Below, piece by piece: positions 281 to 63,906 of a stretch of 64,000 nt of DNA. Made by a program: the position numbers and the translations under genes. Each line of letters opens with the position of its first letter. The stretch's first letter is position 1. Origin of the DNA: Betaproteobacteria bacterium. Its GTDB lineage: Bacteria; Pseudomonadota; Gammaproteobacteria; Burkholderiales; Usitatibacteraceae. The notes beneath the pieces are model-generated. The model was given only the letters and a program-made list of their open reading frames with translations, ran no database searches and was not told the DNA's origin. The DNA lies in NCBI GenBank assembly GCA_016791265.1, contig JAEUMY010000013.1, positions 124,001-188,000 of the forward strand, given 5' to 3'.

Positions 281-1581
281 GGATTGTCCTTCGAAGGAGA
301 AGTGAAAAAGGGCGAGCGCCAGAGCAGGAGCGCCGCCACGGCCTTCAGCATGCAGGGCAGCAGCGCATACACCGCGGCCAGCGCGGACAACACCTCCGCG
401 GTGTGCGCACCCTTGGGCGCATAGCCCAGCCAGCCCAGGAGCGGCAGCGCGACGCCGGCAGCCAATGCGAGATTGCCCTTGGTGACGAGGTTCCACAGGC
501 CGAAGTACGCGCCTTCATTGCGCCCCTTGCCAGCCCGCTCGTCGATGTCGATCACATCGGCCAGGATCGACGGCGGCAACGCCAGATCGGCGCCTAGACC
601 CAGGCCGGACATGATGCAGATGATGAAGAACGCGGTCGCATCCCCCGGCCCCAGCAGGAAGGCCCAGACGAATGCGGCGATGGACAGGATCATCCCGCAG
701 AACCAGGCGCGGCCCTTGCCGATGCGCGAGGACAGGCGAACCCACAGCGGCATGCCGGCGGCACCCGCGGCGAAATAGGCGATGAGGAATTGGGCGGTGA
801 GATCAGGGCGCTGGATGGCATCCTCGATGAAGAACAGCACCAGCGTGGCGGGAATCGATGCGGCGATTCCGTTCATCACGAAAATCCACAGCAACGGGCG
901 GAAGCTCGCGTTGCCGAACGGCTTCAGCATGACTGCGAATATTCGCTTCTCGTCGCTGACATGCGTGGTGACCGCGGGCGGCGACGACCGCATCATCACC
1001 AGCGCCAGGATGACGATGAGCGGACCGAACAGGTAGCTGAACTGCGCGAAGCCCGCACGGGCGCCACTGGCCTTGGACAAAATCTCCGGCAGCGCCGCCG
1101 CGAGGAACACGCCGATCAAGCCCAGCCCCTCGCGAAACGAGACGATGCGGGTGCGCTCGTTGGCGTCGGCACTCATTTCCGCGCCATGCGCCTGATAACT
1201 GATGGTGATCATGCTGTAGGCGGTGTAGACGACGAGCAGCATCATCACCAGCCACACCGACAACCCGGAGGGCGATAGATTTGGCGGGACGAAGAGACCG
1301 ATCATGCCGAGCGCCAGCAGCGGCGCGCCAACGCCAATCCAGACACCGCGTCCACGCCCGGACTGGCGGGTGCGGTCGCTCCAGTAGCCGAGCAGCGGGT
1401 CTTGCACTGCGTCGAACGCGCGCGCGAGCAGCAACAAAAAGCCGATGCTGGCGAGCGACAGACCCAGGGTGTCCGCGTAAAACTTGGGCACATGCACATA
1501 GATGGGCAGCGCCGCCATCGCGAGCGGCAGACCCAGGCCGCCGTAGGCGAGCAGGCTCGCGGCGCTATGCCGGGTCGTCAC
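277..1581 (-). CDS. MFS carrier of the GPH/MFS_2 (melibiose-type) class
   Basis: A 434-residue polytopic protein with about twelve hydrophobic segments. The LARAFDAVQDPLLGYWSDRT stretch is the typical loop 2-3 signature of glycoside-pentoside-hexuronide type carriers. It overlaps both neighbours by ATGA, so translation is coupled within the lipid operon. In this setting it may move a lipid or lipid precursor rather than a sugar; that is inference from context. One copy of the 12-bp palindrome lies inside (935-946) and encodes Arg-Ile-Phe in a cytoplasmic-loop-like stretch. The substrate cannot be read from sequence. Confidence 0.85.
   Translation of the reverse strand: MTTRHSAASLLAYGGLGLPLAMAALPIYVHVPKFYADTLGLSLASIGFLLLLARAFDAVQDPLLGYWSDRTRQSGRGRGVWIGVGAPLLALGMIGLFVPPNLSPSGLSVWLVMMLLVVYTAYSMITISYQAHGAEMSADANERTRIVSFREGLGLIGVFLAAALPEILSKASGARAGFAQFSYLFGPLIVILALVMMRSSPPAVTTHVSDEKRIFAVMLKPFGNASFRPLLWIFVMNGIAASIPATLVLFFIEDAIQRPDLTAQFLIAYFAAGAAGMPLWVRLSSRIGKGRAWFCGMILSIAAFVWAFLLGPGDATAFFIICIMSGLGLGADLALPPSILADVIDIDERAGKGRNEGAYFGLWNLVTKGNLALAAGVALPLLGWLGYAPKGAHTAEVLSALAAVYALLPCMLKAVAALLLWRSPFFTSPSKDNP
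935..946. repeat. GCGAATATTCGC palindrome, in MFS gene
   Basis: Exact copy. It encodes Arg-Ile-Phe in the minus-strand gene. Confidence 0.97.
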
Positions 1582-2183
1582 TTGTTCCCCAGCAGGCGCT
1601 TGCGCAATCCAGGCTGACTGGTCTTTTCGGAGAGCCAGATGTCGAAGAACGCGCGCGCGAACTCGGGGTCGGCCACTATGGCGATGAACTTCGAGCGCGT
1701 GTAAAAGCGCGCCTCCTTGCCGGGCACGTGAATCCCGATCAGCGTGTCGCCGGGCTTGATGTCGGGGAAAATTCTCGCCATCTCGCCATACCAGCGGTTG
1801 AGCTTCTCTTCCGGTCCGTAGCCCTGGCCGCGCTTTTCATCAATGCTGCGCTTGGCGATGTCCGCGCCCTTGAAATTCATGTCGTACACGAGCTCCAGCG
1901 CGAAAGGCTGGTCTGCCGCGTAGCGGCCCTCCGGCGCCCAAAGACGGATGTCGTAGACCTTCATGCCGATGAAGCGGAAGCTGGTGTCGCCGACAATGGC
2001 GAGGCCGGGCAGGTCTTTCTGCACTGGTTCGGGGAGAACGGGATTGGCTTGAGCCAACATGGAAATGCAAGCACAGATGAACACGGAAGAACACAGACAA
2101 AGGCGCTTCCACCAATGGGTGGCGGCATTGCGAATGTTCGCATCGGCTCTGATCTGAATCATCTCAACTCCATTCGTGTTCAT
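1578..2183 (-). CDS. chalcone-isomerase-like domain protein, exported
   Basis: 201 residues. After a hydrophobic export signal (about residues 25-46, ending near MLAQANP) comes a domain with GDTSFRFIGMKVYDIRLWAP and a C-terminal FFDIWLSEKT segment. These are typical of bacterial chalcone-isomerase-like periplasmic proteins, which bind fatty acids or act on unknown substrates. The codons of the signal region coincide with a DNA stretch rich in the words TCTGTG and GTTCATCTGTG. The start at 2183 is the only ATG giving a basic n-region, but an internal ATG eight codons on is possible. It overlaps the MFS gene by ATGA. Confidence 0.75.
   Translation of the reverse strand: MNTNGVEMIQIRADANIRNAATHWWKRLCLCSSVFICACISMLAQANPVLPEPVQKDLPGLAIVGDTSFRFIGMKVYDIRLWAPEGRYAADQPFALELVYDMNFKGADIAKRSIDEKRGQGYGPEEKLNRWYGEMARIFPDIKPGDTLIGIHVPGKEARFYTRSKFIAIVADPEFARAFFDIWLSEKTSQPGLRKRLLGNK
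2130..2141. repeat. one-mismatch palindrome near-copy
   Basis: GCGAATGTTCGC in the chalcone-isomerase-like gene, read Ala-Asn-Ile-Arg on the minus strand. Confidence 0.75.
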
Positions 2184-2209
2184 CCGATTTCATCCGCGCG
2201 TCCGGGGCT

Positions 2210-62504: not shown

Positions 62505-63043
62505 GAACAATAAAGCTCACCCGGATCGACGCCTGGCGCGAGAAGCCGCCGTCGTATCCGCATCCGCTGCGTCGCTGGTTGACCGATCGGGGATCGCTCA
62601 CCGCGCGCATCAAGGCGCACTTCCCGGCGTTCAACCTGCAGCGCCTCGGCCAGTCGCTCAAGGTGCCCCATCGCGATGAGCACCGGCACATGGATTTTCG
62701 TCCGGGCGAATTGGCGGTCGTCCGTGAGGTCCTGTTGAAAAGCGGTGACACGCCACTGGTGTTTGCGCACAGCATCGTCGCGCGGCGCGATGTGCGCGGC
62801 GTGTGGCGTGGCCTCTCGCGGCTGGGCGCGCGGCCGCTTGCGGAAATGCTTTTCCATGACCCGACAGTGGCGCGACTGCCGATGGAATATCACCACATCG
62901 ACGCGCGCCATCCGCTGTTCCGCCGCGCGCTGGCCGTCGCACCGCATGACGCCAAGTCGCTGTGGGCGCGGCGCAGCGTGTTCATGAAGCACGGGCGGCC
63001 GTTGCTGGTGACGGAAGTCTTCCTGCCCGGCATCCGATCATGA
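62501..63043 (+). CDS. ubiC: chorismate pyruvate-lyase
   Basis: 180 residues, single-domain UbiC. Features are the WLTDRGSLTARIKAHFPAFN segment with catalytic Arg, VVREVLLKSGDTPLVFAHSI and the C-terminal SLWARRSVFMKHGRPLLVTE VFLP region. It converts chorismate to 4-hydroxybenzoate, the first ubiquinone-specific step. It overlaps recG and ubiA by ATGA. Confidence 0.93.
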   Translation: MRTIKLTRIDAWREKPPSYPHPLRRWLTDRGSLTARIKAHFPAFNLQRLGQSLKVPHRDEHRHMDFRPGELAVVREVLLKSGDTPLVFAHSIVARRDVRGVWRGLSRLGARPLAEMLFHDPTVARLPMEYHHIDARHPLFRRALAVAPHDAKSLWARRSVFMKHGRPLLVTEVFLPGIRS

Positions 63044-63906
63044 CCCTCACCCAACGCCTGCGCGAATATTCGCTGCTGGTCCGCCTTCACAAACCCATCG
63101 GCATCCTGCTGCTGCTCTGGCCCACGCTCTGGGGATTGTGGATCGCGAGCGACGGCGTGCCCTCGTGGACGCTGCTCTTCGTGTTCGTCATGGGCACAGT
63201 GTTGATGCGTTCGGCTGGCTGCGCCATCAACGACTATGCCGACCGCGATTTTGATGGGGCGGTAAAGCGCACGGCCGATCGTCCGCTCGCGTCAGGACGC
63301 ATCCAGCCTAAGGAAGCCGTGTGGGTCGCCATCGTGCTGGCCGCCCTCGCCTTCGCCATGACCGTGGCGCTCACCAACACGCTCACGGTGCAGCTCTCCG
63401 TCATCGCAGCCTTTCTCGCCGCAAGCTATCCGTTCACCAAGCGCTTCTTCGCCATGCCGCAGGCGTATCTCGGCATCGCGTTCGGCTTTGGCATCCCGAT
63501 GGCGTTCGCGGCCGTGCAAAACGCGGTGCCGCCGGTAGCTTGGGCGTTGCTGGTGGCCAACGTGTTCTGGACGCTGGCCTATGACACCGAGTACGCGATG
63601 GTGGACCGCGATGATGACGTGAAGATCGGCATCAAGACGACGGCGCTGCTTTTCGGAAAGTACGATGTGCTGGCCGTGGTGATTTGCTATGCGATCTCAC
63701 TCGCCATACTGGTGCAAATTGGTTCCCACCTGGGCCTGGGCTGGCCGTACTTCTGCGGCATCGGCATCGCGATCAGCATGGTACTGTCGCACTACCAGTG
63801 GATTCGCGGCCGCTCCCGCGAGGGCTGCTTCAAGGCGTTCCTCCATAACAACTGGGTGGGTGGTGCCATTTTTGCAGGGCTGGTGGCAGACTACGCGCTT
63901 CGCTGA
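63040..63906 (+). CDS. ubiA: 4-hydroxybenzoate polyprenyltransferase
   Basis: 288 residues with about eight or nine membrane spans. The first Asp-rich motif is CAINDYADRDFDGAVKRTAD and the second is AYDTEYAMVDRDDDVKIGIK. It attaches the polyprenyl chain to 4-hydroxybenzoate. A palindrome copy at 63062-63073 encodes Arg-Glu-Tyr-Ser near the N-terminus, before VRLHKPIGILLLLWPTLWG. Confidence 0.95.
   Translation: MTLTQRLREYSLLVRLHKPIGILLLLWPTLWGLWIASDGVPSWTLLFVFVMGTVLMRSAGCAINDYADRDFDGAVKRTADRPLASGRIQPKEAVWVAIVLAALAFAMTVALTNTLTVQLSVIAAFLAASYPFTKRFFAMPQAYLGIAFGFGIPMAFAAVQNAVPPVAWALLVANVFWTLAYDTEYAMVDRDDDVKIGIKTTALLFGKYDVLAVVICYAISLAILVQIGSHLGLGWPYFCGIGIAISMVLSHYQWIRGRSREGCFKAFLHNNWVGGAIFAGLVADYALR
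63062..63073. repeat. GCGAATATTCGC palindrome, in ubiA
   Basis: Exact copy. It encodes Arg-Glu-Tyr-Ser. Confidence 0.97.

What the first reader, a model, noticed from the sequence alone, without database searches (positions are those of the whole stretch)
935..63073. A highly iterated 12-bp palindrome, GCGAATATTCGC, occurs 26 times in 64 kb
Seen directly: 26 exact copies by hand count, 12 of them in the 14-bp form TGCGAATATTCGCA, plus at least five one-mismatch copies. At about 64% GC (my estimate) a given 12-mer of this composition is expected well under 0.01 times in 64 kb. No transposase or mobile gene accompanies it. The pattern is like cyanobacterial HIP1 (GCGATCGC) or the uptake words of Neisseriaceae and Pasteurellaceae, but this word is different and I know of no description of it. 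Possible roles (inference): a nucleoid or segregation protein site, a methylation or repair hotspot, or a DNA-uptake or self-recognition tag.
Basis: partly seen in the sequence, partly recalled or inferred. Interest (0 to 1): 0.95.

Follow-up and report, generated by a model that had tools for sequence, protein, structure and literature searches.

The report
Genome-wide palindrome hosting hairpin elements
One bacterial genome carries the 12-letter DNA palindrome GCGAATATTCGC 1,624 times while relatives in its family carry it 0 to 4 times; a drive that favours DNA bearing the word likely keeps it letter-perfect, and an 84-letter four-hairpin element that splits some copies was probably inserted into them.

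Summary
Confirmed, and larger than reported. The window holds 26 exact copies; the genome holds 1,624 in 3.94 Mb (one per 2.4 kb). None of 398 other genomes drawn from the order has more than 9. The 10-bp core CGAATATTCG is all-or-none: 402 exact copies against 14 core one-offs in 979 kb, near background. It arises by replacement in place: 59 of 66 alignments to relatives are ungapped, while the encoded residues differ from theirs. In the two genes tested, the encoded peptides recur in the five and four best metagenomic homologues, so the word looks clade-wide and old.

New here: 47 places carry a covarying four-hairpin element, usually 84 bp. Joining its flanks restores the palindrome exactly in 15 of 33 examined and with one mismatch in 11. 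The window copy (9340-9420) sits in frame in a GlcD-like gene. Related elements sit seamlessly in tRNA/tmRNA T-arms in another genus. The only RAYT transposase found is bracketed by two palindromes.

Best reading: a HIP1-like word kept by a site-independent drive, more likely uptake/self-recognition than methylation, used as landing site by a REP/IS200-type element. The drive's agent is not identified. My literature searches found neither word (as a genomic repeat) nor element.

The parts
935..946 (.). exact palindrome, in predicted gene 277-1581 (-)
2130..2141 (.). one-mismatch copy (inner mismatch)
4708..4719 (.). exact palindrome, in predicted gene 4176-5492 (-)
7074..7085 (.). exact palindrome
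8311..8322 (.). exact palindrome in GlcD-like gene, encodes SEYSH
8847..8858 (.). exact palindrome in GlcD-like gene, encodes ANIR
8127..9623 (+). GlcD-like FAD-linked oxidase gene (498 aa) with two intact palindromes and one split palindrome holding the hairpin element in frame
9331..9339 (.). left part of split palindrome, TGCGAATAT
9340..9420 (+). hairpin element, 81 bp (27 codons), four hairpins
   Evidence: covariance-model hit 9329-9432, 80.8 bits
9421..9425 (.). right part of split palindrome, TCGCA
10825..10836 (.). one-mismatch copy (outer base)
10853..10864 (.). one-mismatch copy (outer base)
12806..12817 (.). exact palindrome, in predicted gene 12193-12933 (-)
13923..13934 (.). one-mismatch copy (outer base)
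14888..14899 (.). exact palindrome between predicted genes
20341..20352 (.). exact palindrome between predicted genes
28038..28049 (.). exact palindrome between predicted genes
28091..28102 (.). exact palindrome between predicted genes
31292..31303 (.). exact palindrome in predicted gene 31070-32131 (-), encodes ANIR
31937..31948 (.). exact palindrome in predicted gene 31070-32131 (-), encodes ANIR
32237..32248 (.). exact palindrome near a tRNA (32145-32215, -)
34288..34299 (.). exact palindrome in predicted gene 32520-34502 (+)
35972..35983 (.). exact palindrome in predicted gene 34961-36166 (+), encodes ANIR
38970..38981 (.). exact palindrome between two 7-bp tandem arrays
40266..40277 (.). 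exact palindrome in predicted gene 39733-40950 (-)
40971..41666 (+). TrmB gene (tRNA guanine-N7 methyltransferase) with two palindromes
41092..41103 (.). exact palindrome in TrmB gene, encodes CEYSQ
41289..41300 (.). exact palindrome in TrmB gene, encodes ANIR
42557..42568 (.). exact palindrome in predicted gene 42440-43618 (-), encodes ANIR
43325..43336 (.). exact palindrome in predicted gene 42440-43618 (-), encodes ANIR
47212..47223 (.). exact palindrome between two 7-bp tandem arrays
50794..50805 (.). exact palindrome in predicted gene 50465-51076 (+), encodes RRIFA
51190..51201 (.). exact palindrome between predicted genes
60576..60587 (.). exact palindrome in RecG-like gene 60384-62504 (+), encodes ANIR
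60770..60781 (.). one-mismatch copy (outer base)
63062..63073 (.). exact palindrome in predicted gene 62962-63906 (+), encodes REYSL

Best explanation
GCGAATATTCGC is a lineage-specific, highly iterated palindrome present 1,624 times in this genome, likely kept by a molecular drive in which DNA bearing the word is favoured in uptake and recombination (self-recognition), and it probably also serves as the insertion site of an 84-bp four-hairpin element that is predicted to be moved by the genome's RAYT transposase. Shown: the count, the absence from relatives, the all-or-none 10-bp core, gap-free alignment at 59 of 66 compared sites, the covarying element, and the restoration of the palindrome when element flanks are joined. 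Inferred: a protein recognises duplex CGAATATTCG, with the outer G/C and then T/A as weaker contacts; any allele that completes the word gains a similar advantage wherever it lies, so the word accumulates by point substitution where protein or promoter constraint allows and is retained once made. Inferred: the element arrived by seamless insertion without target duplication, as IS200/IS605-type single-strand transposition does, in a site ending in CGA (T-arm TTCGA in another genus, the palindrome's GCGA here). Not identified: the recognising protein.
For: Genome-wide count and reversed-word control. Relatives: 0-4 in 60 genomes, at most 9 in 398 others of the order. Mismatch spectrum in 979 kb: 402 exact, 52 one-off of which 38 at the outer base and 14 in the core, 51 two-off; relatives scaled to the same length give 0-10 one-offs and 15-74 two-offs. 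Spacing near random, CV 0.92 over 108 sites. Density 0.31/kb in predicted genes and 0.80/kb outside; divergent gaps 0.40/kb, co-directional 1.13, convergent 1.43, as expected if one drive acts everywhere and constraint subtracts. One copy in twelve 2-kb bins of GC below 0.56. A mutation-drive balance with scaled strength about 7-8 per core base gives both the copy number and the scarcity of one-offs, for 5-10 background one-offs per Mb. In-place origin: 59 of 66 site alignments ungapped, residue identity 0.28 against 0.62 in control stretches. Retention: encoded peptides in P0121-P0125 and P0242-P0245, the residue before EYS being C, S or R, all with NGC codons. ComEC intact, 884 aa. Element: covariation, seat at palindromes, T-arm seats elsewhere, RAYT over its NCBIfam cut-off.
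Against: No uptake receptor or assay; ComEC is widespread (10 of 14 control genomes) and proves little. From general knowledge, the known uptake words are not palindromic. The C5 methyltransferase-Vsr pair is a recognised route to over-represented palindromes and is not fully excluded. Gaps at compared sites (7 of 66) are about twice the control rate of 5.0%. The sister-species evidence is at protein level only; their DNA was not seen. RIFA, the peptide at the split site in GlcD, also occurs in homologues that lack the other two peptides (P0246-P0250), so it is no evidence of a palindrome there. RAYT bracketed by palindromes is seen for 25 of 1,049 genes, so it may be chance. The model detecting elements includes the palindrome halves, which biases for them; the core-only set still gives 9 exact and 6 one-off of 21.
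Confidence: 0.4

Rival explanations
1. Methylation-directed mismatch repair of the kind Elhai proposed for cyanobacterial HIP1: a methyltransferase marks the palindrome and repair resolves near-miss mismatches towards it, so the word accumulates as a by-product.
For: One-offs concentrate at the outermost base (38 of 52), as reported for HIP1. The genome has one C5 methyltransferase next to a Vsr mismatch endonuclease.
Against: That cluster is AT-rich (46-54% GC against 63%) and has no palindrome between L225 6227 and 15666, so it looks recently acquired. Vsr repair should deplete C-to-T one-offs, but these are the commonest change at each C (C2T 4 of 4, G1A 16 of 38). No PF01555 methyltransferase, and one PF02384 hit, similar in length and score to hits in several relatives. 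PF02086, PF07669 and others were not searched genome-wide; a motif scan of 1.33 Mb gave no further convincing one.
Confidence: 0.2
2. Binding site of an abundant chromosome-organising or segregation protein, each site under selection.
For: Two-fold symmetry, graded symmetric flank preference (T/A 63% next to the 12-mer), genome-wide spread.
Against: Near-absence of degenerate sites (core one-offs at background) implies nearly equal strong selection on about 1,600 sites, including in genes, which is implausible for one protein's average site; spacing is near random.
Confidence: 0.15
3. RAYT system: the palindrome is the cognate recognition sequence of the genome's REP-associated tyrosine transposase, the intact word and the hairpin element being short and long forms of one repeat.
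For: One RAYT in the genome, bracketed by palindromes 26 bp and 134 bp away; the element's ends are the palindrome's halves and are conserved at 78-97% per base although the copies share at most 77% identity.
Against: RAYTs disperse repeats by insertion, whereas the intact word arises mostly without gaps; palindrome-preserving double changes are not seen (1 of 51 two-offs), so hairpin pairing alone is not what is kept; bracketing is only moderately unusual (25 of 1,049 genes).
Confidence: 0.15
4. The word is a decayed or solo form of the hairpin element, spread by insertion or left by deletion.
For: Element ends equal palindrome halves.
Against: Palindromes align mostly without gaps to relatives; about 47 elements against 1,624 palindromes; related elements in another genus sit in tRNA T-arms without any such palindrome.
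Confidence: 0.05

Closest known systems
HIP1 and alternate HIPs of cyanobacteria (Elhai 2015, PMC4390886; abstract, sections 7, 12, 13 and part 1 of section 18 read)
   Same: Palindrome at very high copy, in genes and between them, lineage-specific, deviations biased to the outermost base.
   Different: 12 bp with a 10-bp all-or-none core and an AT-rich centre rather than a 5-8-bp GC-rich word; a betaproteobacterium; no candidate resident methyltransferase with the right history; serves as seat of a hairpin element; 412 copies per Mb against about 500-2500 per Mb for HIPs.
DNA uptake sequences of Neisseriaceae and Pasteurellaceae (recalled; one related paper seen in listing only)
   Same: More than 1,000 exact copies, sharp core, lineage-specific dialect, ComEC present.
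   Different: Those words are not palindromic; no uptake data or receptor here.
REP elements and RAYTs; GTAG- and CGTC-tagged REP dimers (Di Nocera 2013, PMC3733652; abstract and 12 passages read)
   Same: The hairpin element resembles a dimer of palindromes with structured spacer; that paper reports REP dimers sitting inside target palindromes in three species, with hundreds of empty targets in one; intragenic copies encoding 20-30 residues; a RAYT gene is present.
   Different: Stem lengths, first stem bases and tail do not fit the CGTC families; copies are seated in one fixed 12-bp word and, in another genus, in tRNA T-arms.
Rickettsia palindromic elements (passages in PMC3733652)
   Same: Palindromic element read in frame within working genes.
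   Different: No relation of sequence tested; here the seat is a genome-wide palindrome.

Membership tests
HIP (highly iterated palindrome) | Palindromic word far above Markov/shuffle expectation genome-wide | tested here: met
HIP (highly iterated palindrome) | One-off deviations biased to the outermost base | tested here: met
   38 of 52 one-offs
HIP (highly iterated palindrome) | Resident methyltransferase recognising the word | tested here: inconclusive
   one C5 enzyme in a foreign-looking island, one PF02384 hit, no PF01555; specificity unknown, other families not searched genome-wide
HIP1 of cyanobacteria | GCGATCGC in a cyanobacterium | tested here: not met
   12 copies of GCGATCGC against 189 of this word in 449 kb; homologues are betaproteobacterial
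DNA uptake sequence | Sequence-biased uptake | not testable with these tools
   needs transformation assays
DNA uptake sequence | Competence channel gene | tested here: met
   ComEC, 884 aa; weak, as 10 of 14 control genomes have it too
DNA uptake sequence | Non-palindromic word (as in known cases, recalled) | tested here: not met
   the word is a perfect palindrome with symmetric flank preference
CGTC-tagged REP (for the element) | CGTC tag, 8-9-bp stem starting with A-T pairs, 4-5-base loop, CCA tail | tested here: not met
   CGTC stands before stem D, but that stem has 11 pairs, starts A-G, and the tail is AGTCGCA
REP/RAYT system | RAYT gene in the genome | tested here: met
   NF047646, 89.9 bits, cut-off 80
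REP (for the 12-mer) | Mainly extragenic | tested here: not met
   219 of 343 copies wholly inside predicted genes
IS200/IS605-derived element (for the element) | Insertion without target duplication next to a short fixed target | tested here: met
   flank joining restores the palindrome or the T-arm
IS200/IS605-derived element (for the element) | Mobilised by a Y1 transposase | not testable with these tools
   needs excision or nicking assay

The most novel reading that the evidence does not exclude
A two-form palindrome system new to biology: one factor, perhaps the single RAYT with its C-terminal helix-turn-helix-like tail, recognises both the contiguous 12-mer and the same halves brought together at the foot of a folded four-hairpin element; about 1,600 empty seats and about 47 occupied seats form a genome-wide self-marking system that dictates protein sequence (ANIR, EYS, RIFA) wherever it falls in a gene.
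Probability: 0.12. Interest if true: 0.95.

Novelty: new variant of a known kind. Interest (0 to 1): 0.82.

Why it matters
HIP1 has stayed unexplained for decades. An independent palindrome of the same style in a betaproteobacterium, longer, sharper and with a quantified strength of maintenance, gives a second system in which uptake, repair and binding hypotheses can be separated. The palindrome also rewrites protein sequence at variable positions and offers a landing site to a new family of structured elements, tying two puzzles together: what maintains iterated palindromes, and how REP-like elements choose their places.

Tried and rejected
Vsr-driven creation of the word: C-to-T one-offs are the commonest change at each C rather than depleted, and the methyltransferase-Vsr cluster is palindrome-free. 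General avoidance of 6-bp palindromes as a clue: it looked specific against G003 and G009, but G001 shows it as strongly (mean log2 O/E -0.55 against -0.43), so it was dropped. Phage origin: the phage contigs carrying several copies show a different 20-bp operator-like palindrome, and the element core is absent from viral contigs and has no match in plasmids. A HIP-like word in relatives: none among top k-mers of 200 kb each of G001, G003 and G009 and 40 kb of G006. Rfam: nothing at gathering score for the element (weak sub-threshold asX2 hits on two relatives' loci). Hairpin selection on the intact word: palindrome-preserving double changes are not enriched (1 of 51). Literature searches on HIPs, iterated palindromes, uptake words, palindromic elements and the sequences themselves; the element core had 0 papers.
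Full report
What was checked. The window holds 26 exact and 5 one-mismatch copies of GCGAATATTCGC; shuffles give 0.22. Twelve are in the 14-mer. The window is G000:C15:124001-188000 of an unnamed assembly of 3,937,828 bases in 24 contigs (completeness 89.9%), which holds 1,624 exact copies and none of the reversed word, and 1,861 with up to one mismatch. The organism is a betaproteobacterium: the closest named RpoN homologue is from a 'Burkholderiales bacterium' (88%), and a 61% GlcD homologue is from a 'Usitatibacteraceae bacterium'; NCBI places that family in Betaproteobacteria, Nitrosomonadales. 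In 60 relatives the word occurs 0-4 times, and in 398 other genomes drawn evenly from the order at most 9 times (the 9 are in G067 and were not followed). The held set has no second genome of the same genus.

Sharpness. In 979 kb of G000 there are 402 exact copies, 52 one-offs and 51 two-offs. Of the one-offs, 38 change the outer G/C and 14 fall in the ten core bases; relatives scaled to the same length have 0-10 one-offs and 15-74 two-offs, so core near-misses are close to background. Next to the 12-mer T/A is preferred (63%), then weaker symmetric preferences. In the first 449 kb, 208 of 227 AATATT lie in CGAATATTCG. A simple balance of mutation against a uniform drive needs a scaled strength of about 7-8 per core base, for 5-10 background one-offs per Mb, to give both the 412 copies per Mb and the few one-offs (an equilibrium model with stated assumptions, not a fit).

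Placement. In 849 kb, 219 copies lie wholly inside predicted genes, 122 outside and 2 across an edge; densities are 0.31 and 0.80 per kb; reading frames split 110 (ANIR), 59 and 50 (gene calls are my own hexamer-scored ORFs). Between genes, convergent gaps carry 1.43 per kb, co-directional 1.13, divergent (promoter-bearing) 0.40; gaps over 1.5 kb, where genes were probably missed, 0.12 and 0.43. Over contig C15 the 108 sites are spaced nearly at random (CV 0.92), and twelve 2-kb bins of GC below 0.56 hold one copy.

Origin in place and retention. Of 366 coding copies in 288 proteins, 30 could be aligned to relatives' DNA held here, giving 66 site alignments: 59 are ungapped and 7 gapped (control 5.0%); residue identity at the palindrome is 0.28 against 0.62 in control stretches. 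So the word mostly overwrites sequence at variable positions; the gap rate is somewhat above control. In TrmB the peptides CEYSQ and ANIR occur in the five best homologues (P0121-P0125, 78-89% identity) and, among the other 115 listed, EYS in none and ANIR in one (P0127). In the GlcD-like protein SEYSH/CEYSH/REYSH and ANIR occur in the four best (P0242-P0245, 81-86%) and in none of the other 115 besides the query itself. The residue before EYS is always one with an NGC codon, as the palindrome requires. Both lists are capped at 120 of 8,000, and only proteins were seen. RpoN, which has no palindrome here, carries no ANIR in its 120 listed homologues.

The hairpin element. The GlcD alignment showed an in-frame insertion in the query alone. 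Its DNA splits a palindrome, and similar sequences follow other half-palindromes. A core pattern finds 21 copies genome-wide (L309-L329). Nineteen copies align with one structure: a closing helix made by the palindrome halves and four hairpins; 89.3% of cells pair, 27 pairs show changes on both sides, covariation score 0.448 against 0.156 in shuffles and at most 0.134 when slid. DNA folding z-scores of four copies run from -4.2 to -9.0. A covariance model finds 50 hits in G000 at E 0.01 or better, 47 places after removing three opposite-strand overlaps (only 139 of 1,866 candidates were scored, and the 19 seeds are included). In 33 copies in hand, joining flanks at a fixed point gives the exact 12-mer in 15, one mismatch in 11, more in 7; 19 are 84 bp and 22 are multiples of three. 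For the 21 core-defined copies, which do not presuppose the ends, the figures are 9 exact, 6 with one mismatch and 6 with more, against 10 of 2,000 random places with at most one. No two of 32 copies exceed 77% identity, yet the halves are conserved at 78-97% per base beside random flanks. Six of 33 lie inside ORFs with coding signal on both sides: a PabB/PabC-like fusion, an FAD oxidoreductase, a glutathione S-transferase, a pyridine nucleotide oxidoreductase, a 2'-5' RNA ligase-like protein and the GlcD-like protein.

Elsewhere. The model also hits 7 of 13 genomes of genus g2 in the same family and none of 14 in g3 and g4. Thirteen of 14 g2 loci scanned (several overlap) have a tRNA or tmRNA gene nearby, against 2 of 21 G000 loci. 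In the six g2 loci read, a second copy of the neighbouring tRNA or tmRNA 3' end is split in its T-arm, for example GGGTTCGA|element|TTCCC beside an intact GGGTTCGATTCCC. So related elements sit seamlessly after CGA in both genera, in different palindrome-like seats.

Candidate agents. One Y1 transposase domain gene is found in G000; it scores as a REP-associated tyrosine transposase and has palindromes 26 bp and 134 bp beyond its ends, a state shared by 25 of 1,049 predicted genes. ComEC is intact. Methyltransferases found: one C5 enzyme beside Vsr, a NOV_C protein and a GmrSD_N protein in a low-GC island, one PF02384 protein, no PF01555.

Reading. Uniform, strong, position-independent maintenance points to a drive rather than to site-by-site function. 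Between uptake or recombination bias and methyl-directed repair the balance leans to the first because no suitable old methyltransferase was found and C-to-T near-misses are not depleted; neither is shown. That the element was inserted into pre-existing palindromes, rather than the reverse, is inferred from the element-free sister proteins, the T-arm seats and the gap test. It is a new variant of the HIP kind, with a new link to REP-like elements; literature seen is named in Closest known systems and Tried and rejected.

Noticed in passing
window 38909-38949, 38991-39025, 47117-47194, 47284-47316: G-rich 7-bp tandem arrays (GACTGGG, GGCTGGG and opposite-strand AGCCCCT, GTCCCTA) flank the palindromes at 38970 and 47212 in inverted order. 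In 1.33 Mb, 6 of 9 period-7 arrays lie within 100 bp of a palindrome, against 10.5% of random places and 19 of 86 other arrays.
   Followed up: partly
L225 7229-11978 (G000:C21): Low-GC cluster next to polA: C5 methyltransferase, Vsr-like endonuclease, NOV_C-domain protein, GmrSD_N-domain protein and a small unknown protein.
   Followed up: partly
L095, L113, L132 and L103, L111 (IMG/VR contigs 3300022666_000335 and 3300044712_000897): Two related phage contigs carry three and two copies of a 20-bp palindrome ATCTGCGAATATTCGCAGAT, operator-like, independent of the genome-wide word.
   Followed up: no
L370 about 19380-19480: Several close repeats of GACTTCGGGGTC stand directly upstream of the RAYT gene.
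   Followed up: no
G067 (same order, another family): Nine copies of the 12-mer in 2.3 Mb, the highest outside G000, against 0-1 in the other listed genomes of its genus.
   Followed up: no
G007:C72 (L341, L352, L355): Three tandem copies of a tmRNA 3' end, each split by the hairpin element, follow the tmRNA gene.
   Followed up: partly
L225 4675-6021: Caspase-domain (Peptidase_C14) protein gene near the restriction-modification-like cluster.
   Followed up: no
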